From: Rhodopila sp. | GTDB lineage: Bacteria > Pseudomonadota > Alphaproteobacteria > Acetobacterales > Acetobacteraceae | Direction: 5' to 3' | DNA: 39,997 bases | NCBI GenBank assembly: GCA_025355085.1 | Contig: JANXLQ010000299.1 | Coordinates: forward strand, 1-39,997 | In this document: in pieces, positions 5,572 through 20,420 of the stretch | Layout: every line of letters starts with the position of its first letter | Position numbering within the stretch: the stretch's first letter is position 1 | Made by a program: the position numbers and the translations under genes | Notes under the pieces: generated by a model | Told to the model about the DNA's origin: nothing | The model's input: only the letters and a program-made list of their open reading frames with translations | The model's database searches: none

Positions 5572-6273
5572 GTGCCTGCTCTTCCGGTGCGCGAAAGCGA
5601 CCTTTACGCCCCGGTGAAACGCCATCTGGAAGACCTGGGCTATGCCGTGCGCGGGGAGGTCGGGAAATGCGATATCGTCGCGGTCAGCGGCGAATCCGTG
5701 ATCGCGGTCGAACTGAAACTGACTTTCGGTCTGCCGGTGCTGTATCAGGCGCTGCAACGCGTGCCGTCCGTGGACCTTGTTTATGTCGCCGTGGCGGTCG
5801 CGCCGGGACGTAAAGCGCGCGGCAACTGGGACGCTCAGGTGCCGGATGCGTCCCGTCTCTGCCGGATGCTCGGTGTGGGTCTGCTATCCGTGCGCGACGG
5901 CATGATCGTCGTACATGCCGACCCCGGCCCGTTCCAGCCGCGCAAACAACCGAAACAGCGCGCCCGCCTGCTCAGTGAGTTCTGCCGCCGCACCGGCGAC
6001 CACAATTTGGGCGGTACGAACAAGCAGCCCCGGATCACGGCGTATCGAGAAGAGGCTTTGGACTGCGCCAACCTGTTGGCCTGCCACGGGCCGATGAAAG
6101 CCGCCGCCATGCGCGAGGCGACGGGGTCCGCAAAAGCCACCGCCATTCTGCGTAACGACGTCTATGGCTGGTTCGAAAAAATCGCCCGCGGCACCTATGC
6201 CATCGCGCCGGCCGGCCGGCTGGCGCTTGCACTGTATGCCGACGTGCTTACCGCCCGGGCTGCTGTGCGATAA
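5572..6273 (+). CDS. DUF2161 family protein, predicted PD-(D/E)XK nuclease fold
   Basis: A 233-residue protein starting at GTG 5572, two bases after the stop of the FAD oxidase, so probably co-translated. RESDLYAPVKRHLEDLGY, GEVGKCDIVAV and VIAVELKLTF near the N-terminus fit the PD-(D/E)XK core (Asp in CDIV, E-L-K in VELKL) described for DUF2161 'putative phosphodiesterase' proteins. The second half (YREEALDCANLL, HGPMKAAAMREATG, DVYGWFEKIARGTYAI) is the conserved C-terminal winged-helix-like part. The protein has no signal peptide, so it is cytoplasmic. The family is common in alphaproteobacteria but has no proven role; nuclease activity is inferred from the fold only. Confidence 0.85.
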   Translation: MPALPVRESDLYAPVKRHLEDLGYAVRGEVGKCDIVAVSGESVIAVELKLTFGLPVLYQALQRVPSVDLVYVAVAVAPGRKARGNWDAQVPDASRLCRMLGVGLLSVRDGMIVVHADPGPFQPRKQPKQRARLLSEFCRRTGDHNLGGTNKQPRITAYREEALDCANLLACHGPMKAAAMREATGSAKATAILRNDVYGWFEKIARGTYAIAPAGRLALALYADVLTARAAVR

Positions 6274-6380: not shown

Positions 6381-7436
6381 GTGACCCAGGCATGGATCAA
6401 CAGCATCGGTACGGCAGTTCCCCCGCATGACATCCACGCAGCATTCGTCGAGTTTGGCCGGGACACCCTCACCGACTGGCACAAGCGTATGCTATTCGAC
6501 CGCATGGCCAAGCTGTCCGGCATCGAGCACCGCTACTCGATTTTCGAGCCCGGCCCGAAACCGCGAGACCAGGTCGTGGACGCCACCGGCTTCTACCGGC
6601 GCGGCGCTTTCCCCTCCACCGCCGCCCGCATGGCGCTATATGAGCCGCACGCCCTCGATCTCGCGATGCAGGCCGTCCGCAAGCTGGACGTTGACCCGGC
6701 CGGCATCACCCACCTGATCGTCGCGAGTTGCACCGGCTTCTCGGCCCCCGGCCTGGATTTCCAGATCATGCGCGCAACTGGTATGCCGGACAGCATACAG
6801 CGCACGATCGTCGGCTTCATGGGTTGCTTTGCCGCCGTCAACGCCCTGAAACTCGCCGATCAGATCGTCCGGGCCGACCCGGCGTCGCGCGTGATGGTGG
6901 TGAATTTGGAACTGTCCAGCCTGCACCTGCAGGAGGACTTCCAGGACGTGCCAAAAATGCTGAGCTTCCTGCTGTTCGCCGACGGCGCCGCCGCCGCGCT
7001 GATCACTGCCAATCCAATGGGCGTTGCGCTCGGGCGCTTCCAGGCCACGGTCATCCCACGCAGCCACGACCTCATCACCTGGCGCATTGGCGACACCGGG
7101 TTTCAGATGCATCTGTCCGGGCAGGTTCCCGGCCGCATCCGCCGCTGGCTGCCAGAGTTCGGACCCGCGCTGCTGCCCCCTGAACCGCCCGTGCTGTGGG
7201 CCGTGCATGCCGGCGGCCGTTCGATCCTGGACTCGGTCCAACAGGGTCTTGGCCTCGCGCCGGACGCATTGCGGTTTTCCCGCGAGATCCTCCGCGACTA
7301 CGGCAACATGTCGTCGGCGACGCTGATGTTCGTGTTGCAAAAGATCATGACCGAACCGGATGCGCGCGGCCCCGGCATGGCGATGGCCTTCGGGCCCGGG
7401 CTGACGGTCGAGACGTTCGCGTTTGCCCGCCCATGA
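6381..7436 (+). CDS. Type III polyketide synthase (chalcone/alkylresorcinol synthase family)
   Basis: A 351-residue homodimeric-type ketosynthase. It extends an acyl-CoA starter with malonyl-CoA units and cyclises the product to an alkylresorcinol or alkylpyrone. The catalytic triad is visible: Cys149 in GFMGCFAA, His276 in WAVHAGG, Asn309 in YGNMSS. VASCTGFSAPGLDF is the conserved segment upstream of the active-site Cys, and the C-terminal AFGPGLTVET is the family's GFGPG loop. The GTG start at 6381 is preceded by TAAGGGA at 6368-6374; there is an upstream in-frame frame to 6288 without family similarity. It overlaps the methyltransferase by ATGA. The starter chain length and ring type cannot be read from sequence; the downstream partners suggest a phenolic lipid. 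Confidence 0.93.
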   Translation: MTQAWINSIGTAVPPHDIHAAFVEFGRDTLTDWHKRMLFDRMAKLSGIEHRYSIFEPGPKPRDQVVDATGFYRRGAFPSTAARMALYEPHALDLAMQAVRKLDVDPAGITHLIVASCTGFSAPGLDFQIMRATGMPDSIQRTIVGFMGCFAAVNALKLADQIVRADPASRVMVVNLELSSLHLQEDFQDVPKMLSFLLFADGAAAALITANPMGVALGRFQATVIPRSHDLITWRIGDTGFQMHLSGQVPGRIRRWLPEFGPALLPPEPPVLWAVHAGGRSILDSVQQGLGLAPDALRFSREILRDYGNMSSATLMFVLQKIMTEPDARGPGMAMAFGPGLTVETFAFARP

Positions 7437-8110
7437 ACCTGTCCCGGCGCAGCACCCAGCAAGAGCGCATGGACACCGACTGTGCCGATTATGCCGACTA
7501 CAGCCGGTGCCTGCGCGACCTGTCCCGGGTGAACGTCGCCACCATGACCCATCGTCCGATGCTGTCCTGGCTGGCCAGGCATGCGCACGGCGAGTTCTCG
7601 GTGCTGGACATCGCCTGCGGCCACGGTGACGGATTACGGAAAATCCGAGCGCGCTATCCCGCCGCCAAATTGACCGGCATCGACCTCAATCCCTGGGCAA
7701 CCCAAGCCGCGCGGGAGGCGACCGATCCAAACGCGCGCATCGACTTCCTCAACGGCGATGCGTTCGCTTTCAAACCCGTCGAAAAATTCGATTTCATCGT
7801 TTGCTCGCAGTTCACCCACCACCTGACCGACGAGCAAGTTGTCACTTTCCTGCGCTGGCTTCCGCGCAATGCCGAAAAGGGCTGGTTCATCAGCGACCTG
7901 CATCGCCATGTCTTGCCCTATTATGGGTTCCCGATCCTCGCCCGGCTGATGTTCTGGCACCGGTTCGTGCGGGAGGACGGCCAGATATCCATCGCCCGCG
8001 CCTTCATCCGCGCCGAGTGGCAAGCGCTGCTGGGTCAGGCCGGGATCACCGAACAACAGGCATTCGTCGCCTGGTACATCCCGTTCCGACTGTGCGTCGG
8101 GTCCCGGTGA
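7433..8110 (+). CDS. Class I SAM-dependent methyltransferase of the PKS operon
   Basis: A 225-residue cytoplasmic methyltransferase. SVLDIACGHGDGL (residues about 56-68) is motif I of the SAM-binding Rossmann fold, and LTGIDLNPWA is the acidic loop that holds the ribose. FDFIVCSQFTHHL is motif IV. The ATG overlaps the PKS stop (ATGA), and the gene's own end overlaps the following FAD gene, so the three are surely one transcript. It probably methylates a phenolic oxygen or ring carbon of the polyketide. It is a soluble Rossmann enzyme, unlike the membrane isoprenylcysteine-type methyltransferases found in some bacterial type III PKS operons, such as srsB of Streptomyces. Confidence 0.88.
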   Translation: MNLSRRSTQQERMDTDCADYADYSRCLRDLSRVNVATMTHRPMLSWLARHAHGEFSVLDIACGHGDGLRKIRARYPAAKLTGIDLNPWATQAAREATDPNARIDFLNGDAFAFKPVEKFDFIVCSQFTHHLTDEQVVTFLRWLPRNAEKGWFISDLHRHVLPYYGFPILARLMFWHRFVREDGQISIARAFIRAEWQALLGQAGITEQQAFVAWYIPFRLCVGSR

Positions 8111-9213
8111 TTATTATCGGAGCTGGCCCGGCCGGCACCGCCGCGGCGATCACCTTCGCGCGCGCGGGCCACCGCCCGATTTTGATCGAGCGGACCTCCA
8201 GGCCAACGGACAAAGTCTGCGGCGACTTTCTCAGCGCGGATACCATTCAGCGTGCCCAAGCCCTCGGCGTCGATCCCGCCGCGCTTGGTGCCGCGCCAAT
8301 CCGGCAGGTTCGACTGATCCACGGCGACCGAATGGCCGAAACCACGCTGCCGTTTCTGGCAATGGGATTATCCCGGAGGGTGCTGGATGCCGCCTTGCTG
8401 CATCAGGCTGAACGCGCCGGAGCCGACATACGGCTAGGGCAAACCGTTCGACACCTGACGCGCAATGGGGACCGCTGGACCATTAAAGCCGGCGAACACG
8501 CTGAGATAACGGCCCGCTCCGTGTTTCAGGCCACCGGCAAGCACGATTTGCGAGACCTGCCGCGCCGGCACACCGGCCGCGATGCCATCGGCATGAAAAT
8601 GTATTTCGCCCTGCCCCCTGAGTCGGCGAAACGACTGGACGGTGCCGTCGAACTGACACTGTTCCCTGGTGGTTATGCCGGCATGCAACAGGTCGAGGAG
8701 GGCCGGACCGTCCTCTGCATTGCTGTCCAACGCGCCGCGTTTCAGTTATTTGGCGGAAGCTGGGCCAGCCTGATCGCGGCGATCGCGCACCGTAGCCGGC
8801 GGTTCGCGGCGATACTTCCTGGCGCCCGGGCGCTGCTGCCCCGTCCGCTGGCGGTGGCCGGAATTCCGTATGGGTATCGGGCTGGATCCTCTTGCCCCGA
8901 CGAATTGTACCGTCTCGGCGATCAGGCAGCGGTGATCCCATCCCTGACGGGAGATGGCATCGCCATCGCGCTGCACAGCGGAACCGCCGCAGCCGAGACA
9001 TGGCTCTCCGGTGCAACCGCACCAACCTATCAGCAGACGCTCGGACGCACGCTGGCTGGCCAGATGCGCCTTGCCGGTATTCTTCATCGCGCCTGCCTGA
9101 GCGGCCCAATCCAATCCGCCGTCGTGCGTGCCGCCGCCGTGTTTCCCGGCGCTCTGCGGCGGGCCGCGACACACACGCGACTACCTTCCCGCGCCAGCCT
9201 TGCCCAACCATGA
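8092..9213 (+). CDS. FAD-dependent oxidoreductase/monooxygenase of the PKS operon
   Basis: A flavoprotein of about 373 residues in the geranylgeranyl reductase / aromatic hydroxylase superfamily. VIIIGAGPAGTAAA at the N-terminus is the GxGxxG FAD-binding motif, CGDFLSADT follows as in geranylgeranyl-reductase-like enzymes, and LGDQAAVIPSLTGDGIAIAL is the second FAD contact (GD motif). GTG 8092 is preferred because it places five residues before the first beta strand; GTG 8107 would begin at the strand itself. The overlap with the methyltransferase is 19 bases (4 if 8107 is used). In phenolic-lipid operons a flavin hydroxylase oxidises the methylated resorcinol towards a quinone; that role is inferred here. 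The predicted frame extends much further upstream, but that part has no family similarity. Confidence 0.85.
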   Translation: MRRVPVIIIGAGPAGTAAAITFARAGHRPILIERTSRPTDKVCGDFLSADTIQRAQALGVDPAALGAAPIRQVRLIHGDRMAETTLPFLAMGLSRRVLDAALLHQAERAGADIRLGQTVRHLTRNGDRWTIKAGEHAEITARSVFQATGKHDLRDLPRRHTGRDAIGMKMYFALPPESAKRLDGAVELTLFPGGYAGMQQVEEGRTVLCIAVQRAAFQLFGGSWASLIAAIAHRSRRFAAILPGARALLPRPLAVAGIPYGYRAGSSCPDELYRLGDQAAVIPSLTGDGIAIALHSGTAAAETWLSGATAPTYQQTLGRTLAGQMRLAGILHRACLSGPIQSAVVRAAAVFPGALRRAATHTRLPSRASLAQP

Positions 9214-9259: not shown

Positions 9260-10384
9260 ATGCGCTCCGGAAAGACGTTCACGCGGTTGGATATTTATAT
9301 CTTCCGTCAGGTGCTGGTCGCGCTGGTGGTTGCGACCAGCGGTCTGACCGCGCTTATCTGGCTGACTCAATCGCTCCGGTTCGTGGATCTGGTGGTCAAT
9401 CGCGGCCTGTCATTTGCCGTCTTCATCCACCTCACATCGCTGCTCATACCCAGCTTTGTCGCGGTGATACTGCCGATCATGACCTATGTGGTGATCCAGT
9501 TCGTCTATCAACGCATGTCCGCGGATCGGGAACTGACGGTGATGCGTGCCTCGGGTCTGTCCCCCTGGGCGCTGGCGCGGCCGGCCCTCGCGGTTGCGGT
9601 GCTGGTGACGCTGATCGGATACGGTCTGAGTATTTGGGGCGTTCCCTCCGCGATGGCGGACTTCAAGGAGTTTCAGTGGCAGATCCGCAACCGGCTGGCC
9701 GCTTTCTTGCTCCAGGACGGGGTCTTTACTCCACTATCGGACAAACTGACGGTGTACGTGCGTTCCCGCGATCAAAACGGAACCTTGCGGGGCATCTTCG
9801 TGGACGATGCCCGCGACCCGTCGGCCCATGCCACGATCCTGGCAGAGCGCGGGCGGCTTCTGGATGGTCTCAACGGGCCACGGGTACTGCTGCTGGACGG
9901 CAGCCGCCAGGTGGTTGACCATCAGTCCGGCCGGCTGGACATCCTGACGTTCCGGGAGAACCAGATCGATCTGACCGAAGCCGTCAAGGATGGCACCGCC
10001 CGTCCGATCGACATGTCGGAACTTCCATTAAGGCAACTGCTTTACGATGCCCCCTATTTCGAACGCGACCGGCCTAAATGGATTGCTGAAGGCCACAAGC
10101 GACTGACGGCACCCCTGGCCACGTTGTCCTATGCCATGGTCGGCCTGTTTTCAGCATTGGGCGGGACGTTCCGGCGTCACGGCGGTATTCTGCGCCCCCT
10201 GGTCACAGTTGGCGCCATGGTCGCCCTACTGGCGCTCGGTCTGGCGTTCGGCACACTTGCCGCGCGGGACAACAACCTGCTGATACTCATTTGGCTGCAC
10301 GCCACTGTACCCGGCGTCGTTGCCGGCTGGCTGTTGCTGGGACCTCGGTTAGAGTTTTTCCACACGCAGCGGGCAGAAGTCTGA
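9260..10384 (+). CDS. lptF: LPS export ABC transporter permease LptF
   Basis: A 374-residue inner-membrane protein of the YjgP/YjgQ family. LptF and LptG form the membrane part of LptB2FG, which extracts LPS from the inner membrane and passes it to LptC/A/D. TRLDIYIFRQVLVALVVAT is the typical N-terminus running into the first membrane helix; MSADRELTVMRASGLSPW is the cytoplasmic coupling-helix region that contacts LptB. A periplasmic beta-jellyroll domain (about 120-255) separates helices 1-3 from 4-6. The ATG at 9260 was chosen because it begins at the conserved start; upstream in-frame codons overlap the FAD gene. lptG follows 4 bases after its stop. Confidence 0.95.
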   Translation: MRSGKTFTRLDIYIFRQVLVALVVATSGLTALIWLTQSLRFVDLVVNRGLSFAVFIHLTSLLIPSFVAVILPIMTYVVIQFVYQRMSADRELTVMRASGLSPWALARPALAVAVLVTLIGYGLSIWGVPSAMADFKEFQWQIRNRLAAFLLQDGVFTPLSDKLTVYVRSRDQNGTLRGIFVDDARDPSAHATILAERGRLLDGLNGPRVLLLDGSRQVVDHQSGRLDILTFRENQIDLTEAVKDGTARPIDMSELPLRQLLYDAPYFERDRPKWIAEGHKRLTAPLATLSYAMVGLFSALGGTFRRHGGILRPLVTVGAMVALLALGLAFGTLAARDNNLLILIWLHATVPGVVAGWLLLGPRLEFFHTQRAEV

Positions 10385-11504: not shown

Positions 11505-13871
11505 ATGGATCGTGCGCGCCGCCCAAGACCAGAACGATACGCCTTCCGCGTGGCCGGGTTCCGCGCGGCGCCGTGGAGCAAAGCCTTCCAGGCGATGCCG
11601 CATGTAACCGCCCTCCAGGCAATCCCGCGTATAACTGCCTTTCAGGCAATCCCGCGTATAACTGCCTTTCAGGCCATGGCGCTCATTGCCATGGCGTGTT
11701 GCTTCGGTGCGAACATCGCGCAGGCGCAGTTGAGTACGCTGACCACGCGAACCGGCAACGACGCGTCCAAGAATGAGCCTGTGACGTTTTCAGCCGACCA
11801 GGTGGAATACGACAAGGACAAGTCCCTGGTCACCGCCACCGGCCATGTGGAGGCATGGCAGAACGGACATGTCATGCGGGCGGACAAGATTACCTTCGAT
11901 CGCAATACCGGCGTCGCCGCCGCCACGGGGCACGTCGTACTGCTGGAGCCGAACGGCGAGACGATGTTCGCCGACTACGCCGAGATGCAGAACAACATGC
12001 AGGACGGTATCCTGAAGGATATGCGGGCGTTGTTGCAGCAGAACGGCAGGCTGGCGGCGAACGGCGTCCAACGCACCGGCGGACAGATCAACGAACTCTC
12101 GAAGGTCGTTTATACCACCTGTAACCTGTGCGCGGACGACCCCAGCCGTCCGCCGCTGTGGCAAATTCGCGCCGCCTCGGCGGTGCAGGATCTGGAACAC
12201 AAGAGGATCGAGTATCACGACGCGACGCTGGACATGTTCGGTGTGCCGGTCGCCTATTTCCCGTATTTCTGGCACGCCGATCCCTCGGTCAAGCGCGAGT
12301 CCGGCATTCTCCCGCCGCTGTTTGGCATATCGTCCAATTTGGGTGCATTTTATGGACAGCCCTACTACGCGGTGATCGACGATCAGTCGGACGCGACATT
12401 GCTGCCGATGATGACCACGCGGGCTGGGCCGCAGCTCGATATCGAGTATCGCCGGCGGTTTAACGAGGGGTCGCTGCTGTTAAATACCTCGGCCGGGTAT
12501 CTGAATAACTCGACCCAGGGGTCGTTTACGGCCAACGGCCGGTTCAATTACGACGATACCTGGCGCTACGGTTTCGACATCAACCGTGCGTCGTCGGTCG
12601 AATACGTGCGTGCATTCCATGCCGTGCAGGGACTCGGCAGCGACCCGAACGTGCTGACCAGTCAGTTCTATTTGGAAGGCTTCGGCGAAGGTTCGTACAC
12701 ACGGCTGGATTCTAAGATCTATCAGGGCCTGAGCTCGGCGATCAATACCGGCACGCTTCCCGTGGTGCTGCCGCGCTATCAGTACAGCTTTTTCGGCCGG
12801 CCGGATTCTCTGGGCGGGCGGCTGTCGGTCTCAACCGGCGCGTTCAACGTCGTCCGCACCACCGGCACCAACACCCGCCGCGGAGCGCTGACGGTCGATT
12901 ATGAGCGTCCGTTTGCCGGCCTGCTGGGCGACCAATGGAAAGTCACGTTGCATGGCGATGCCAATGCCTATGACGCATCGATGGTCAATCAGTTGCCAAA
13001 TTTCAGCCCTTACAACAACCTGAACTCGGCGCGCGCGCTACCCCAGGTGGCGGTGGATTTCCGTTGGCCGTTCGCTCGGGATGGCGGCGCCTGGGGAACC
13101 CAACTGATTGAGCCGATCGCGCAGATCATTGTCGCGCCGCAGGCTGGCGACAGCCAGCTTCGCCGGTATCCGAACGAGGACAGCCTGGATTTTGAATTCA
13201 CCGACGCGAATCTGTTTGGCTTCAACCGGTTCTCCGGCACAGATCGGCTGGAAGGCGGCACGCGCGCGAATGTCGGGCTGCATGGGGCGTGGTATCTGGG
13301 CGGCACCACATTCGACGGGTTGGTCGGACAATCCTATCGCACCGGCAAGGACAACATCTTTCCCGAAGCCTCCGGCCTGCATGACCGGGTATCGGACATT
13401 GTCGCGCGCGGCAGTTTCGCGCCCGCCCCGTGGTTGGACCTGACCTACCGCACGCGCCTGGCCAAGGACACACTGGCGACCAGGTTCGCCGATGCAATCG
13501 CAACCGTCGGTGTCGAGAAATTTCGTCTATCCGCCGGCTATACCTATACCAGCTTCAACCCCTACACGTATTACGATCAGGCGCCGCCGCCCCCGGCGGG
13601 GAATGCGTACTATTTCCCCCGCAACGAAGCGACCATCGGCGTGTCGTCCAAGTGGGGCGACTACCGGTTCAGCGGCTACGCCCGCCGCGATCTGGCCAAG
13701 AATGAAATGGTCGCGGTCGGCGCCGACGCAATCTACGAAGATGAGTGCTTCATCTTTGATTTACGGGCGTTCCGTCGCTATACGACCATCAATGGAGATA
13801 ACGGCGCCACCACCGTGTTGTTCCTGTTGACCTTCAAGACGATCGGCCAATTCGGCTATCGCGCGCTATGA
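11505..13871 (+). CDS. lptD: LPS-assembly outer-membrane protein LptD
   Basis: A 788-residue outer-membrane beta-barrel that inserts LPS into the outer leaflet with LptE. After the signal sequence (cleavage probably after the AQA near residue 73) an OstA/LptA-like beta-jellyroll reads VTFSADQVEYDKDKSLVTAT, then TTCNLCADDPSRPPLWQIRA and VPVAYFPYFWHADPSVKRES, all LptD signatures; the barrel follows to an aromatic-rich end. The start at 11505 gives an unusual n-region of about 57 residues containing a nine-residue tandem repeat; ATG 11676 (MALIAMACC) lies immediately at the hydrophobic core and ATG 11592 inside the repeat is also possible. Only one Cys (near the C-terminus, DECFIF) can pair with the N-terminal CNLC pair. 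Confidence 0.95.
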   Translation: MDRARRPRPERYAFRVAGFRAAPWSKAFQAMPHVTALQAIPRITAFQAIPRITAFQAMALIAMACCFGANIAQAQLSTLTTRTGNDASKNEPVTFSADQVEYDKDKSLVTATGHVEAWQNGHVMRADKITFDRNTGVAAATGHVVLLEPNGETMFADYAEMQNNMQDGILKDMRALLQQNGRLAANGVQRTGGQINELSKVVYTTCNLCADDPSRPPLWQIRAASAVQDLEHKRIEYHDATLDMFGVPVAYFPYFWHADPSVKRESGILPPLFGISSNLGAFYGQPYYAVIDDQSDATLLPMMTTRAGPQLDIEYRRRFNEGSLLLNTSAGYLNNSTQGSFTANGRFNYDDTWRYGFDINRASSVEYVRAFHAVQGLGSDPNVLTSQFYLEGFGEGSYTRLDSKIYQGLSSAINTGTLPVVLPRYQYSFFGRPDSLGGRLSVSTGAFNVVRTTGTNTRRGALTVDYERPFAGLLGDQWKVTLHGDANAYDASMVNQLPNFSPYNNLNSARALPQVAVDFRWPFARDGGAWGTQLIEPIAQIIVAPQAGDSQLRRYPNEDSLDFEFTDANLFGFNRFSGTDRLEGGTRANVGLHGAWYLGGTTFDGLVGQSYRTGKDNIFPEASGLHDRVSDIVARGSFAPAPWLDLTYRTRLAKDTLATRFADAIATVGVEKFRLSAGYTYTSFNPYTYYDQAPPPPAGNAYYFPRNEATIGVSSKWGDYRFSGYARRDLAKNEMVAVGADAIYEDECFIFDLRAFRRYTTINGDNGATTVLFLLTFKTIGQFGYRAL
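11583..11675 (+). repeat. 27-bp in-frame tandem repeat in the 5' part of lptD
   Basis: Units start at 11583, 11610, 11637 and (partial, 12 bp) 11664. They encode AFQAMPHVT, ALQAIPRIT, AFQAIPRIT and AFQA. Units 2 and 3 differ at only one or two bases, so the duplication is recent; unit 1 has diverged. The repeat lies just before the hydrophobic core of the LptD signal peptide and could alter its n-region length by slippage. Confidence 0.9.
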
Positions 13872-16086: not shown

Positions 16087-16195
16087 GGCCGAACCCGAGG
16101 TCAATTTCAGGCGGCATTCATCTCCTCTCATCGAGAACGACACGCACTGCCGCGATCGTCGCATCCGGCTGCTCTTCCATCTTGTGTCGATCTTA

Positions 16196-16219
16196 CATTT
16201 CTGTCATTCTAGAAATATG
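16196..16219 (+). promoter_or_regulatory. Candidate ArsR operator overlapping the ars start
   Basis: ATTTCT at 16197-16202 and AGAAAT at 16211-16216 form an inverted repeat with an 8-base spacer, and TTCTAGAA at 16207-16214 is a perfect 8-bp palindrome inside it. The repeat ends right at the ATG (16217) of the ArsR-ArsC gene, which has no clear ribosome site, so the message may be leaderless or very short-leadered. ArsR proteins bind imperfect palindromes at their own promoters; the operator role is inferred. Confidence 0.45.
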
Positions 16220-17080
16220 GAATCATTGGACGCCGCGACCGCCTTCGCTGCCCTCTCGCAGACAACAAGGCTCGATCTGATGCGGCTGCTCATAGCCGAA
16301 GGTGCCAGCGGGATGCCGGCCGGGGATATAAGCCTGCGCCTTGGCCTTCCGCCCTCGACACTATCGTTCCATCTCGCCGCACTCGAACGCGCCGGACTGA
16401 CCCAATCGACCCGCCACGGCCGGCACATCGTCCACGCGGTGCGGTTGGCAGGCCTGCGCCAGTTGCTCGCATTTCTCACCGAAACCTGTTGCGGCGGCCG
16501 TCCCGAACTCTGCGGCGATATCGCGCGCCTGCTGCCCCCGTTGCCGGAAGAGGATCAATATATGACTCCCGCGTTCAACGTCTTATTCCTATGCACGCAT
16601 AACGCGGCCCGTTCGATCATGGCCGAGGCGATCCTGCGGCAGATCGGCGGCACACGGTTCCATGCCTACTCCGCAGGGTCCAACCCGAACGCCGCACCCA
16701 ACCCCGAGGTGATCGAGAAGTTGCATGTCTTCGGCCACGACACCGGTTCCCTGCACAGCAAGTCCTGGCATGAATTCACCGGCCCGAATGCGCCGCGAAT
16801 GGATTTCGTCATCGCGCTCTGCGACACGCTGGATGATCGAACCTGCCCGGATTTTTCCAAATTCGCCATCACGGCGGCATGGCCGCTGCCCGATCCCGCC
16901 AAATTCACCGGCAACGCAACGGAACGCGCGACGATGCTGAACGAGCTGTATGCGAGCCTGCGCCGCCGCCTGGAGATTTTCACCGCCCTGCCGTTCGCCT
17001 CGCTCGATCGCATGGCGATGAAAGCGCGCCTGGATGAGATCGCCGGCAACGGCATCCCCGCCCGAACCGGAGGACGTTGA
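16217..17080 (+). CDS. ArsR-type arsenic sensor fused to an ArsC arsenate reductase
   Basis: A 287-residue fusion. Residues 1-110 are an ArsR/SmtB winged-helix repressor ([32 protein letters not shown]) with Cys91, Cys92 and Cys99 in [11 protein letters not shown], close to the arsenite-binding Cys trio of Acidithiobacillus-type ArsR. Residues 117-287 are a low-molecular-weight-phosphatase-type arsenate reductase: P-loop CTHNAARS with Cys126 and Arg132 (CX5R) and the catalytic Asp in WPLPDPA. It would repress the operon until arsenite binds, and reduce arsenate. Met116 (ATG 16562) has AAGAGGA about 8 bases upstream, so free ArsC may also be made. The chosen start ATG 16217 begins the ArsR fold. 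Confidence 0.93.
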
Positions 17081-17082
17081 GC

Positions 17083-18123
17083 ATGCGTGTTGGCATCAAT
17101 GGCATGGGCCGGATCGGGCGCCTGGCGCTGCGGGCGGCGATGGGCGGGATATATCGCGACCCAAACGACCCGCGTGCCGCGAACCGCCTGGACGTGGTCC
17201 ACATCAACGAATTGAAGGGCGGTGCCGCGACGGCTGCGCATTTGTTGGAGTTCGACAGTATTCACGGCCGCTGGCGCTCGTCATTTGACACCAACGAATG
17301 CTCGGTTTCAGTCGCCGGCAAGCGGATCGGCTTTTCCGCCGAACCGACGGCCGATGGAGTCGCATGGGGCGATCTTGGATGCGATATTGTCCTTGAATGC
17401 ACCGGGAAATTTCTGACCGAGGCAACACTGGCCGGCTATTTCGCACGCGGCGTGAAGCGGGTGATCGTTGCTGCACCGGTGAAAGAGGCCGGTGCGCTGA
17501 ACATCGTTGTCGGTGTCAACGATCATCTTTACGATCCGGCCCGCCACAGCCTGCTGACGGCAGCATCCTGCACGACGAACTGCCTCGCGCCCGTGGTTAA
17601 GGTTTTGCACGAGGCCATCGGTATCCGGCATGGCCAGATCACGACGATCCACGATCCCACCAACACCAACGTCGTGGTCGATGCGCCGCATCGGGACCTG
17701 CGCCGGGCACGGTCGGCCATGCAATCGTTGTCGCCCACCACGACGGGCAGCGCTACCGCCATCGCGCTGATCTATCCAGAACTGAAGGGTAAACTGAATG
17801 GCCATGCGATCCGCGCGCCCGTGCTGAACGCCAGCCTGACCGATTGCGTGTTCGAAATGTCCAGGCCGGTGACCGTCGAAGAGGTCAATGCGTTGTTCCA
17901 GACCGCCGCCGACGGCCCGCTCGCCGGTATCCTGGGTTATGAGACCCGGCCGCTGGTGTCCGCCGACTATGCCAATGATACGCGCAGCGCGATCGTGGAT
18001 GCACCGAGCACTATGGTTACCGATGATACTATGGTGAAGGTTTATGCCTGGTATGACAATGAAGTCGGGTACGCCTGCCGCATGGTCGATCTCGCCAACA
18101 TCGTGATCGACAGGGGCCACTGA
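17083..18123 (+). CDS. ArsJ-associated glyceraldehyde-3-phosphate dehydrogenase
   Basis: A 346-residue GAPDH. With arsenate in place of phosphate it makes 1-arseno-3-phosphoglycerate, which ArsJ exports. [14 protein letters not shown] is the NAD-binding start; the catalytic Cys163 lies in AASCTTNC and [15 protein letters not shown] and [12 protein letters not shown] are family hallmarks. The ATG at 17083 is preferred, with GGAGG at 17069-17073 nine bases upstream, over the TTG at 17077 that overlaps the previous stop. Its stop overlaps the ArsJ start. The position between an ArsC fusion and arsJ, not the sequence alone, shows it is the arsenic-dedicated paralogue and not glycolytic gapA. Confidence 0.92.
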
Positions 18124-19349
18124 TGTCCGGCGTTCGCAACTACACGGTCGTCACCGCGAGTTACTGGTGCTTTACCCTGACCGACGGCGCATTGCGCATG
18201 CTGGTTCTGCTGCACTTCTATGCGCTCGGTTACACGCCATTGATGCTGTCCTTCTTGTTCCTGCTGTACGAAACGGCCGGCATTTTCGCCAATCTCGGCG
18301 GCGGCTGGCTTGCCTTGCGGTTCGGCATTCCGCGCATGCTGATGACCGGGCTTGGCTTACAGATCGCCGGCCTGATGGTACTGTCCGCACTGGCCCCCAA
18401 CTGGAGCGCAACAATGTCGATCGCCTGGGTGGTCGCCGCGCAAGGGATCGCCGGGGTGGCGAAAGACATTACCAAGACAGCATCTAAATCCGCGATCAAG
18501 GCGACATCGGAGGGCGGTTCGGGCCAGTTGTTCCGTTGGGTGGCATGGTTCACCGGGTCGAAGAACGCAATGAAAGGGGTTGGCTTCTTCGCCGGCGGTC
18601 TGTTGCTGGAAACGATCGGATTCCGCGGCGCGCTATGGTCGATGGCCGGCGTGCTCGCCTGCGTGCTGTTGGGCGTGTCACTCAGTCTGCCGCGCACGCT
18701 GGGCAGCGCCAAGGCGTCTAAATCGTTCCGGGAACTGTTCGCCAAGACCCGTGGCATCAACCTGATGGCGGCGGCACGGATTTTCCTGTTCGGCTCTCGG
18801 GATGTATGGTTCGTGGTCGGTTTGCCGGTTTTCCTCTACAGCCAGGGCTGGCATTACATGCAGGTCGCCGGTTTCGTTGCCAGTTGGACCATCGGCTATG
18901 GACTGGTGCAGGCCATCGCGCCATTCGTCATCCGCCGCAGTAACGACGGCCTGTCCCGAGAAGTCCCTGAGGCTCGGCTTTGGGGCGCCGTCCTGACCGC
19001 GATTCCGGTGGTCCTTGCCATCGTGCTGGGCAGTGCGCCGTCCGGCAGGCCCGATCTGATTGTGACGGCCGGCCTTGGCCTGTTCGGCTTCGCCTTTGCT
19101 GTGATTTCGTCGCTGCATTCCTATCTGATCCTGGCCTATGCCGGATCGGCGAAGGCAGCCGAAGATGTCGGCTTCTACTATGCCGCCAATGCCGGTGGCC
19201 GGCTGGCCGGAATCGTGCTGTCAGGAGTGTTGACCGGCATTGGCGGCCTCGCTGCGTGCCTGTGGGGATCGGCGGCGATGCTGGCAATTTGCATGGCGAT
19301 TACCTTCATGTTGCCCACCGCCGTCGCGCCAACGCGGCTACCTGCCTGA
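18123..19349 (+). CDS. arsJ: Organoarsenical efflux permease ArsJ (MFS)
   Basis: A 408-residue major-facilitator protein with about 12 membrane helices that exports 1-arseno-3-phosphoglycerate, giving net arsenate expulsion. The start NYTVVTASYWCFTLTDGALR is characteristic of ArsJ, as is QGIAGVAKDITKTASKSAIK after helix 4 and FRWVAWFTGSKNAMKGVGFF. The ATG at 18123 overlaps the GAPDH stop (TGATG), so translation is coupled. It works in the inner membrane together with the preceding GAPDH; this pair alone is known to give arsenate resistance. Confidence 0.93.
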   Translation: MSGVRNYTVVTASYWCFTLTDGALRMLVLLHFYALGYTPLMLSFLFLLYETAGIFANLGGGWLALRFGIPRMLMTGLGLQIAGLMVLSALAPNWSATMSIAWVVAAQGIAGVAKDITKTASKSAIKATSEGGSGQLFRWVAWFTGSKNAMKGVGFFAGGLLLETIGFRGALWSMAGVLACVLLGVSLSLPRTLGSAKASKSFRELFAKTRGINLMAAARIFLFGSRDVWFVVGLPVFLYSQGWHYMQVAGFVASWTIGYGLVQAIAPFVIRRSNDGLSREVPEARLWGAVLTAIPVVLAIVLGSAPSGRPDLIVTAGLGLFGFAFAVISSLHSYLILAYAGSAKAAEDVGFYYAANAGGRLAGIVLSGVLTGIGGLAACLWGSAAMLAICMAITFMLPTAVAPTRLPA

Positions 19350-19370
19350 CCCATCGACAAGGCCGAGCGC

Positions 19371-20420
19371 ATGAATGAAACCCGCCCGATGCCTGCCATG
19401 GGCATGTTCGAACGCTTCCTGACCCTATGGGTCGCACTTTGCATCATCGCCGGAATCGGTCTCGGCCAACTCACACCCGGCATCTTCCAGGCACTTGGCA
19501 ACGCCACCGTGGCACAGGTGAATTTGCCGATCGCCATCCTGGTCTGGCTGATGATCGTTCCGATGCTGCTGAAAATCGACCTCGGCGCGCTGGCACAGGT
19601 GGGGGAGCACTGGCGCGGGATCGCAACAACGGTCGGCGTGAATTGGTTGGTCAAACCGTTTTCCATGGCGCTGCTTGGCTGGATCTTCATCGCCCATCTG
19701 TTCCGGCCGCTACTGCCGCCGGACCAGATCGATGCATACATCGCCGGCCTGATCCTGCTGGCCGCCGCACCCTGCACAGCGATGGTGTTCGTCTGGTCCA
19801 GCCTGGTGGACGGCGAACCGCATTTCACCCTGTCGCAAGTCGCGCTGAACGACATGATCATGGTCGTCGCGTTCGCCCCGATCGTTGCTTTCCTGCTGGG
19901 GTTGTCGTCGATCGCGGTACCCTGGGACACGCTGGTGCTGTCGGTCGCGCTGTACATCGCCGTCCCGGTTATCGTCGCCCAGCTCTGGCGCCGTTCGTTG
20001 CTGGCCGGGGGCGGGTTGGAGCGGACGCTACACCGTCTGACACCGTTGTCGCTGTCCGCACTGCTGCTGACCCTGGTGCTGCTGTTCGGTCTGCAAGGCG
20101 GACAGATCATCCGCCAGCCACTGGTTATCGTCTTGCTCGCGGTGCCCATCATCATCCAGGTCTATTTCAATGCCGGACTGGCCTACTGGCTGAACCGCCG
20201 GCTCGGCGTCGAGTGGTGCGTCGCCGGCCCCTCGGCCCTGATCGGCGCCAGCAACTTCTTCGAACTCGCCGTTGCGGCCGCGATTGCCCTATTCGGCTTT
20301 CAGTCCGGTGCGGCATTGGCAACCGTCGTCGGCGTGCTGGTAGAGGTGCCGGTCATGCTGTCGGTGGTCCACATCGTGCGGCGGTCGCGGGGATGGTACG
20401 AAAAGGATCGATCGGCGTAA
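19371..20420 (+). CDS. acr3: Arsenite efflux carrier Acr3
   Basis: A 349-residue, roughly ten-helix carrier of the bile/arsenite/riboflavin transporter superfamily that exports arsenite using the proton-motive force. MFERFLTLWVALCIIAGIGL opens helix 1; LAAAPCTAMVFVWS carries the essential Cys of helix 4, and ASNFFELAVAAAIALFG is the helix 9 signature. The gene follows arsJ by 21 bases with no terminator between. It removes the arsenite produced by the ArsC domain of the first gene, while ArsJ handles the organoarsenical, so the operon covers both routes. A 25-bp hairpin follows about 40 bases after its stop. Confidence 0.95.
   Translation: MNETRPMPAMGMFERFLTLWVALCIIAGIGLGQLTPGIFQALGNATVAQVNLPIAILVWLMIVPMLLKIDLGALAQVGEHWRGIATTVGVNWLVKPFSMALLGWIFIAHLFRPLLPPDQIDAYIAGLILLAAAPCTAMVFVWSSLVDGEPHFTLSQVALNDMIMVVAFAPIVAFLLGLSSIAVPWDTLVLSVALYIAVPVIVAQLWRRSLLAGGGLERTLHRLTPLSLSALLLTLVLLFGLQGGQIIRQPLVIVLLAVPIIIQVYFNAGLAYWLNRRLGVEWCVAGPSALIGASNFFELAVAAAIALFGFQSGAALATVVGVLVEVPVMLSVVHIVRRSRGWYEKDRSA

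What the first reader, a model, noticed from the sequence alone, without database searches (positions are those of the whole stretch)
6381..9213. Three-gene type III PKS operon of phenolic-lipid layout
A type III PKS with an intact Cys-His-Asn triad overlaps a soluble SAM methyltransferase, which overlaps a flavin oxidoreductase. This matches the srsABC logic (resorcinol formation, methylation, oxidation to quinone) but with a Rossmann methyltransferase and a geranylgeranyl-reductase-like flavoprotein. The product may be a new methylated alkylresorcinol or quinone, placed next to the LPS-export operon.
Basis: partly seen in the sequence, partly recalled or inferred. Interest (0 to 1): 0.65.

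Follow-up and report, generated by a model that had tools for sequence, protein, structure and literature searches.

The report
Methylated alkylresorcinol operon in Rhodopila relative
Three overlapping genes in a Rhodopila-like bacterium look like a known, widespread kind of phenolic-lipid pathway (build a long-tailed resorcinol ring, methylate it, probably hydroxylate it), so the find is real but largely ordinary.

Summary
PKS 6381-7436 (GTG), methyltransferase (MT) 7433-8110 and FAD enzyme 8107-9213 are joined by ATGA and GTGA overlaps, carry an intact Cys149-His276-Asn309 triad and are under purifying selection (dN/dS 0.09-0.26). It is not an srs operon: the MT is a soluble class I enzyme. 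It matches the hid type (hierridin and planctomycete alkylresorcinol operons). Of 72 distinct loci picked by PKS similarity, 65 carry both partner genes (62 as PKS>MT>FAD), in several phyla, and 0 carry the isoprenylcysteine-type MT motif; a distant PKS clade shows the reverse (this MT in 0 of 34, the motif in 23 of 34). PKS Trp234 sits where ArsB has the Trp tied to resorcinol formation. In two Deinococcus operons the FAD slot holds a protein with no significant BLAST similarity to the window's but a good PF01494 match, which suggests a ring hydroxylase. The PKS+MT+FAD cluster was already reported for Acetobacteraceae (PMC8776678). lptF lies within 2 kb in 6 of 10 relatives only. New member of a known kind; product and role unproven.

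The parts
6381..7436 (+). type III polyketide synthase, 351 aa, GTG start; catalytic Cys149, His276, Asn309; Trp234, Met243, His182
7433..8110 (+). soluble class I SAM-dependent methyltransferase, 225 aa; nearest NCBIfam model NF004851/PRK06202 (below its cut-off)
8107..9213 (+). FAD-dependent oxidoreductase, 368 aa, GTG start; fold shared by class A flavoprotein monooxygenases, phenolic halogenases and geranylgeranyl reductases; probable ring hydroxylase
7433..7436 (+). ATGA start/stop overlap PKS-MT
8107..8110 (+). GTGA start/stop overlap MT-FAD
9260..10384 (+). lptF (name and start given by me from the ORF), 46 bases downstream of the FAD gene; neighbour, not part of the cassette (adjacency not conserved)

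Best explanation
A hid-type phenolic-lipid operon. Step 1 (supported by family): the PKS loads a long-chain acyl group (acyl-CoA or acyl-ACP), extends it three times with malonyl-CoA and closes the tetraketide by C2-C7 aldol condensation with decarboxylation, giving a 5-alkylresorcinol. Step 2 (supported by homology; site unknown): the class I methyltransferase puts one or more methyl groups on ring carbon or oxygen. Step 3 (inferred): the FAD enzyme hydroxylates the ring, as needed for the third oxygen of hierridin B; the product could go on to a benzoquinone, chemically or enzymatically. The ATGA/GTGA overlaps suggest coupled translation. The biological role (membrane lipid, redox carrier, antibiotic) is open.
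For: PKS: Pfam and fold (VIA-align Z 42-43, rmsd 2.0-2.5 over 331-343 residues for the best rows, among them Steely1, the M. marinum enzyme, PKS11 and PKS18). Trp234 aligns with the Gly of plant chalcone synthases; its +9 spacing to Met243 equals ArsC Gly284/Met293, where ArsB has Trp281: ArsB W281G loses resorcinol and gains pyrone, ArsC G284W shifts the other way (PMC6274091, passages). PMC5916927 (passages) lists this Trp in other resorcinol formers. PKS18, a pyrone maker, has Leu266 there. Cassette: 62 of 72 distinct loci PKS>MT>FAD and 3 more with both partners rearranged. Planctomycete PKSs from such operons or variants made pentadecyl- and heptadecylresorcinols in C. glutamicum; adding the G. 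maris MT+FAD pair gave one probable C-methylation; the three planctomycete proteins share 48-55% identity with their Hid counterparts; hierridin B carries an extra 4-hydroxyl (PMC10896814). A Paludisphaera operon (MT>FAD>PKS) is homologous to all three window genes: PKS 40%, MT 32%, FAD 27% over the aligned parts. FAD slot: in two Deinococcus operons it holds a protein with no significant BLAST similarity to the window's FAD (best expect 0.12 each) that matches nearly the whole PF01494 profile (3.9e-51, 2.8e-49). S. yanoikuyae has a carrier protein and a ketosynthase just before the PKS.
Against: I found no product, expression or enzyme data for an alphaproteobacterial cassette of this type (searches; RpsA of R. 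centenum is characterised, but I could not tell which clade it belongs to). The planctomycete experiment left the role of the FAD enzyme open (PMC10896814). Trp234 also occurs in all 34 clade B loci and in PKS11, whose PDB entries are titled for alkylpyrones, so it does not prove resorcinol. The class A DG motif (recalled) is altered: ATGK in the window. The best fold matches of the FAD model are halogenases (Z 34-36), ahead of monooxygenases (Z 30-32), with a geranylgeranyl-reductase-like structure, 3OZ2, at Z 31.0. The Deinococcus swap is not clean-cut: my FAD profile still hits both proteins weakly (1.3e-7 and 4.6e-9), PF01494 also matches L018 (4e-25), L082, L115 and the window to falling degrees, and the NCBIfam hits of the L081 protein shown all lie below their cut-offs. 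No direct comparison with HidA, HidB or HidC was possible.
Confidence: 0.65

Rival explanations
1. The PKS makes alkylpyrones (or a mixture with resorcinols), and the MT and FAD enzyme decorate a pyrone.
For: The best solved relatives by profile are the M. marinum enzyme 7CB3 and PKS18, and PKS18 is an alkylpyrone enzyme (PMC5916927); in the tree PKS18, 7CB3 and L085 sit next to clade A, whose basal node has support of only 0.118. Clade B and PKS11 share the Trp. RpsA of Rhodospirillum centenum, also alphaproteobacterial, makes dimethylpyrones and/or dimethylresorcylic acids (PMC6274091); I could not place RpsA in my tree.
Against: PKS18 has Leu266 where the window has Trp234. Planctomycete PKSs from operons of this type gave resorcinols (PMC10896814).
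Confidence: 0.17
2. The FAD enzyme is a halogenase acting on the phenolic ring, as in chlorinated hierridin C, whose chlorination is unexplained (PMC8086630).
For: The top VIA-align rows include PltA, ChlB4, Mpy16, Bmp2 and RadH (Z 34-36). Pfam Trp_halogenase is above its cut-off in L016 (50.7 against 21 bits, residues 9-70 only) and L018 (37.4 bits, residues 86-156 only).
Against: The WxWxIP halogenase motif (recalled) is absent from 71 of 71 cassette FAD frames; the 71 include five repeated copies, and at least three are cut short before its place. The window's own FAD has no Trp_halogenase hit at E<=0.001. In Deinococcus the slot holds a PF01494-type protein. Monooxygenases score nearly as high on fold.
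Confidence: 0.1
3. The FAD enzyme is a reductase or dehydrogenase of the geranylgeranyl-reductase type that reduces the ring or the alkyl chain.
For: TIGR02032 is the best NCBIfam hit of the window's FAD (1.6e-29) and of L016, L018 and L082. The reductase-like 3OZ2 (Z 31.0) and the 'flavoprotein/dehydrogenase' 3NIX (Z 33.8) are among the fold matches.
Against: 103.6 bits is below the cut-off of 158.8. The [YFW]xWxFP motif (recalled) is absent in 71 of 71 frames, with the same reservations as above. QhpG, a flavin-dependent monooxygenase, is the second hit, also below its cut-off. The Deinococcus protein is PF01494-type.
Confidence: 0.15

Closest known systems
hidABC hierridin operon of picocyanobacteria and the methyltransferase-oxidoreductase-type III PKS operon of Planctomycetota (PMC10896814, PMC8086630)
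   Same: Same three kinds of gene; hidC>hidA>hidB is one of the two cyanobacterial gene orders and equals the window order; a planctomycete operon of this layout (L082) is homologous in all three genes
   Different: 27-40% identity to L082; order differs from nearly all planctomycete operons; methylation site and final product unknown
PKS + methyltransferase + FAD-dependent monooxygenase cluster of acidophilic Acetobacteraceae (PMC8776678, section 16 read)
   Same: Same bacterial family; the same two partner proteins in all their type III PKS clusters
   Different: That paper worked on type strains, does not name Rhodopila in its main text and calls the metabolite unknown
srsABC of Streptomyces griseus and PKS + isoprenylcysteine-type MT pairs (bps-like; recalled)
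   Same: General logic: alkylresorcinol, methylation, oxidation
   Different: Methyltransferase family differs: the RHPNY signature is in 0 of 72 clade A loci and 23 of 34 clade B loci; no Srs sequence was compared
PKS18 (M. tuberculosis) and its M. marinum ortholog 7CB3
   Same: Closest solved structures by profile
   Different: Pyrone enzyme; Leu266 at the position of Trp234, Asn208 at the position of His182

Membership tests
type III polyketide synthase | Cys-His-Asn triad in the chalcone-synthase fold | tested here: met
   Pfam over cut-off; Cys149/His276/Asn309 invariant in 18 sequences; Z up to 42.8 to solved type III PKSs
type III polyketide synthase | Extends acyl-CoA/ACP with malonyl units | not testable with these tools
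   needs an enzyme assay
hid-type three-gene operon (PKS, class I MT, FAD enzyme) | All three genes together, in a published order | tested here: met
   window order PKS>MT>FAD; 62 of 72 distinct PKS relatives have it; equals hidC>hidA>hidB (PMC8086630)
hid-type three-gene operon (PKS, class I MT, FAD enzyme) | Sequence homology with HidA, HidB, HidC themselves | not tested
   no Hid sequence was fetched; a planctomycete operon of the same layout stands in: 40%, 32%, 27%
hid-type three-gene operon (PKS, class I MT, FAD enzyme) | Product is a methylated, hydroxylated alkylresorcinol | not testable with these tools
   needs chemistry
srsABC operon | Membrane isoprenylcysteine-type methyltransferase (SrsB type; recalled) | tested here: not met
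   the MT is Methyltransf_25/12/11; RHPNY in 0 of 72 clade A loci
geranylgeranyl reductase family (TIGR02032) | Score above the curated cut-off | tested here: not met
   103.6 against 158.8 bits
flavin-dependent halogenase | WxWxIP motif (recalled) | tested here: not met
   absent from the window's full-length FAD and from 71 of 71 cassette FAD frames, at least three of them cut short
class A flavoprotein monooxygenase | Fold, FAD-binding GxGxxG and GD motifs | tested here: met
   Z 30-32 to TrlE, MNX1, HpxO, 3HB6H, PHBH and others; invariant G5, G7, G10, G271, D272; PF01494 38.4 bits over cut-off 22, residues 2-127. Halogenases and reductases share these features.
class A flavoprotein monooxygenase | DG motif for NAD(P)H/FAD binding (recalled) | tested here: inconclusive
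   ATGKHDLR in the window, AHGKRS in Bacteroidota, ADG in L018

The most novel reading that the evidence does not exclude
The cassette makes a methylated hydroxy-alkylresorcinol that is oxidised to an alkyl-benzoquinone used as a redox carrier or outer-membrane lipid in Rhodopila relatives, here one without a detected photosynthetic reaction centre. The hydroxylation slot has been filled more than once by different flavoprotein lineages (QhpG/geranylgeranyl-reductase-like in most cassettes seen, PF01494-type in Deinococcus), so the step and not the enzyme lineage is what selection keeps.
Probability: 0.2. Interest if true: 0.55.

Novelty: new member of a known kind. Interest (0 to 1): 0.3.

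Why it matters
A three-gene phenolic-lipid cassette was found here in Alphaproteobacteria, Gammaproteobacteria, Bacteroidota, Deinococcota, Planctomycetota, Bacillota and (with a PKS that reads in two frames) Actinomycetota, on plasmids and on other contigs. The first two steps are anchored by published planctomycete and cyanobacterial work; the FAD step is the published gap. The odd FAD gene in Deinococcus and the cassettes without a methyltransferase (L121, L018) are natural comparisons that make that gap directly testable. The window itself adds one more member, next to the LPS-export genes in only part of its relatives.

Tried and rejected
srsABC membership: rejected on the methyltransferase family. 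Halogenase and reductase readings of the FAD enzyme: recalled motifs absent, kept as rivals. lptF coupling as a functional clue: within 2 kb in 6 of 10 loci, within 0.2 kb in 3. Promoter and terminator scan: 0 promoter-like sites; 6 terminator-like against a mean of 2.6 in shuffles, uninformative. Shine-Dalgarno pattern: 2 matches, as by chance. Tunnel-based chain-length prediction: not done; no model coordinates in the script box. Trp234 as sole proof of resorcinol chemistry: rejected because clade B and PKS11 share it. Direct alignment with ArsB/ArsC: not obtained; 3VS8/3VS9 were not among the best 60 chains shown. PKS tree (FastTree): clade A without L085 forms one group, but its basal node has support of only 0.118, so 'clade A' rests on shared residues and gene context rather than on that node. 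Mantel correlations of PKS, MT and FAD distances (0.83-0.88; largest permuted value 0.30-0.40; 65 loci) include host relatedness and are no proof of functional coupling. The MT and FAD profiles were built from cassette members; loci were picked by PKS alone, so co-occurrence is not circular, but divergent partners can be missed (the FAD of L087 is annotated, but was missed). Left out before the count of 72: four loci with the same PKS as others (L020, L021, L025, L026), L001 (the window again; counted once as L019) and L085 (Streptomyces; it groups with PKS18, has no MT or FAD hit, and has His at position 182 but Leu at 234). L113-L121 were fetched later and are not in the 72. In clade B, 5 of 34 loci have weak FAD-profile hits (E 3.6e-7 to 9.5e-6). 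Clade B and most clade A loci reach only 1.5 kb to each side. In one search my spacing pattern for the GD motif matched only 21 of 71 frames, partly because many are cut at the locus end; it was not used.

Papers: PMC10896814 (abstract, passages, sections 13 and 15), PMC8776678 (passages, section 16), PMC8086630, PMC6274091, PMC5916927, PMC6159551 (passages only; the last gave one reference-list passage, not used); all others search listings only. Costa 2019, Anand 2015, Satou 2013 and Awakawa 2013 were not read; known only as cited in those papers or recalled. Paper searches. In those listings and in the passages I read I saw no experimental work on an alphaproteobacterial cassette of this type (RpsA excepted, clade unknown); the library lacks most subscription journals.
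Full report
WHAT IS THERE. The window is a whole contig (C399) of a 4.94-Mb assembly whose nearest named PKS relatives are mostly Rhodopila MAGs. On the + strand lie PKS 6381-7436, methyltransferase 7433-8110 and flavoprotein 8107-9213, tied by ATGA and GTGA overlaps. Upstream is a DUF2161 gene (5572-6273); 46 bases downstream begins an lptF-like gene. The GTG start of the PKS fits the conserved N-terminus of its relatives. All three genes are under purifying selection against L002, L005, L008 and L009: dN/dS 0.09-0.20 (PKS), 0.13-0.25 (MT), 0.17-0.26 (FAD).

THE PKS. Pfam and fold identify a type III PKS. Cys149, His276 and Asn309 are invariant in 18 sequences. By the alignments, Trp234 occupies chalcone synthase position 256 and Met243 position 265 (numbers counted by me back from the catalytic His303, recalled), and Leu266 of PKS18. 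The same +9 spacing links ArsC Gly284 and Met293; ArsB has Trp281 there, and exchanging the residue shifts ArsB and ArsC between resorcinol and pyrone (PMC6274091). That these are the same position is inferred from spacing; I had no ArsB or ArsC sequence. PMC5916927 reports this Trp in alkylresorcinol formers and names PKS11 among them, while the PKS11 PDB entries are titled for alkylpyrones. So Trp234 favours resorcinol without proving it. His182 (CHS position 197) is present in all 72 clade A loci and in none of 34 clade B loci; Trp234 is in all of both.

THE CASSETTE ACROSS GENOMES. Searching with the PKS alone: 85 of 299 genomes drawn from the family hit at E<=1e-20, 80 of them (own included) at 48% identity or more and 5 at 28-32%; 80 of 385 drawn from the class, 13 of them (own included) at 47% or more, the rest at 35% or less; 31 of 398 drawn from the phylum, 12 of them (own included) at 46% or more and only one of those outside the class. 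Of 7 genomes of the genus in the family draw, 4 have it (own included), so it is accessory. Neighbour analysis, 72 distinct clade A loci: 62 PKS>MT>FAD; 3 with all three rearranged (L082, L083, L086); 3 PKS>MT (L006 and L013 cut by the contig end; L087, whose FAD gene is annotated but missed by my profile); 2 PKS alone (L023 at a contig end; L058, confirmed alone over 6 kb to each side in L113); 1 FAD>PKS (L018); 1 PKS>FAD (L042; no MT in about 6 kb to each side, L121). The cassette is found in Bacteroidota (L016, L017), Deinococcota (L081, L119), Planctomycetota (L082), Gammaproteobacteria (L083), Bacillota (L084) and Actinomycetota (L087, PKS in two frames). Clade B, 34 distinct loci: none has this MT; 23 have an open frame with RHPNY, a signature of the isoprenylcysteine-type methyltransferases that I chose after seeing the neighbours; 0 of 72 clade A loci do; 5 of 34 have weak FAD-profile hits. 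The two alphaproteobacterial PKS lineages thus mostly keep different methyltransferases.

THE METHYLTRANSFERASE. The nearest NCBIfam model is NF004851 (PRK06202, 'hypothetical protein'): 119.8 bits against a cut-off of 243 for the window, and the top hit for the four other MTs tried (L016, L081, L082, L119), of which L081 and L119 pass the cut-off. C- or O-methylation cannot be told from sequence: the G. maris enzyme is probably a C-methyltransferase, HidA an O-methyltransferase (PMC10896814).

THE FAD ENZYME. The AlphaFold model is good (pLDDT 88.0, pTM 0.89). VIA-align places it with phenolic and other halogenases (PltA, ChlB4, Mpy16, Bmp2, RadH: Z 34-36, rmsd 2.8-3.2), 3NIX and FasV (Z 34), the monooxygenase TrlE (Z 32), hydroxylases (Z 30-32) and the reductase-like 3OZ2 (Z 31); fold alone does not decide. 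The window protein lacks the recalled halogenase and reductase motifs and scores below the TIGR02032 cut-off. The most telling fact is Deinococcus: PKS and MT are of the same families, but the third gene has no significant BLAST similarity to the window's (best expect 0.12 for L119 and for L081) and matches nearly the whole PF01494 profile (2.8e-49 and 3.9e-51). L081 is also hit by monooxygenase, MhpA- and UbiH-type models, all below their cut-offs in the 25 shown. The contrast is one of degree: my FAD profile still finds both proteins weakly, and L018 matches both TIGR02032 and PF01494 well. If the slot does one job, hydroxylation is the most likely one. This agrees with hierridin B, which has an extra 4-hydroxyl (PMC10896814). 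It remains inference: that paper could not assign the FAD enzyme.

CONTEXT. Neighbours vary: an efflux permease before the PKS in Methylobacterium oryzae; an efflux permease and an outer-membrane component near it in Sphingobium indicum; a carrier protein and a ketosynthase before the PKS in S. yanoikuyae; siderophore uptake genes in Falsirhodobacter; a cyclopropane-fatty-acid-synthase family gene and IS elements in Mesorhizobium. Of 10 Acetobacteraceae loci with 2 kb or more beyond the FAD gene, 3 have lptF within 0.2 kb, 3 at 1.4-1.9 kb and 4 not. I read nothing into lptF.

WHAT IS KNOWN. [quoted passage not shown] PMC10896814 reports 58 of 96 planctomycete PKS genes in three-gene operons and alkylresorcinol products. 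PMC8086630 gives the order hidC>hidA>hidB in some cyanobacteria. The window cassette is therefore a new member of a known kind; what this work adds is the residue and gene-context split from the second alphaproteobacterial lineage, and the odd Deinococcus FAD gene.

HOW SURE (my estimates). Type III PKS: near certain. Three-gene operon of hid type: about 0.9. Alkylresorcinol product: about 0.75. Methylation by the MT: about 0.85. Hydroxylation by the FAD enzyme: about 0.6 to 0.65. Quinone end product and respiratory or envelope role: speculative.

Noticed in passing
window 16184-20420: By eye, an arsenic island: ArsR-ArsC fusion, GAPDH, an ArsJ-like permease and an ACR3-like transporter (ORFs; names recalled, not searched).
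   Followed up: no
window 11505-11690: The LptD-like ORF begins with a short repeated peptide (AIPRITAFQ twice), perhaps a wrong start codon or a small tandem repeat.
   Followed up: no
G000 whole genome: No photosynthetic reaction centre gene (PF00124) at E<=0.001 in an assembly rated 100% complete, although Rhodopila globiformis is a phototroph (listing).
   Followed up: partly
L081 5822-6967; L119 6812-7954: Deinococcus cassettes carry a PF01494-type protein, dissimilar by BLAST to the window's FAD enzyme, in the third slot.
   Followed up: yes
L121; L113; L018: Clade A PKS genes without the methyltransferase (L121, G217, about 6 kb to each side) or without both partners (L113, Hyphomicrobiales UR115, 6 kb to each side); Phycisphaeraceae L018 has FAD>PKS and no MT hit.
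   Followed up: partly
L118 1409-2637; L087 3746-4992: The PKS of Paracoccus liaowanqingii and of Microbacterium sp. read in two frames: possibly broken genes or sequencing errors.
   Followed up: no
L117 4560-5992: Sphingobium yanoikuyae has a phosphopantetheine-binding protein and a ketosynthase directly before the PKS, suggesting acyl-ACP starter supply.
   Followed up: no
L062 2-955; L068 3-1079: Two clade B PKS loci have a nearby gene that by eye looks like a histidine-rich alkane hydroxylase or desaturase.
   Followed up: no
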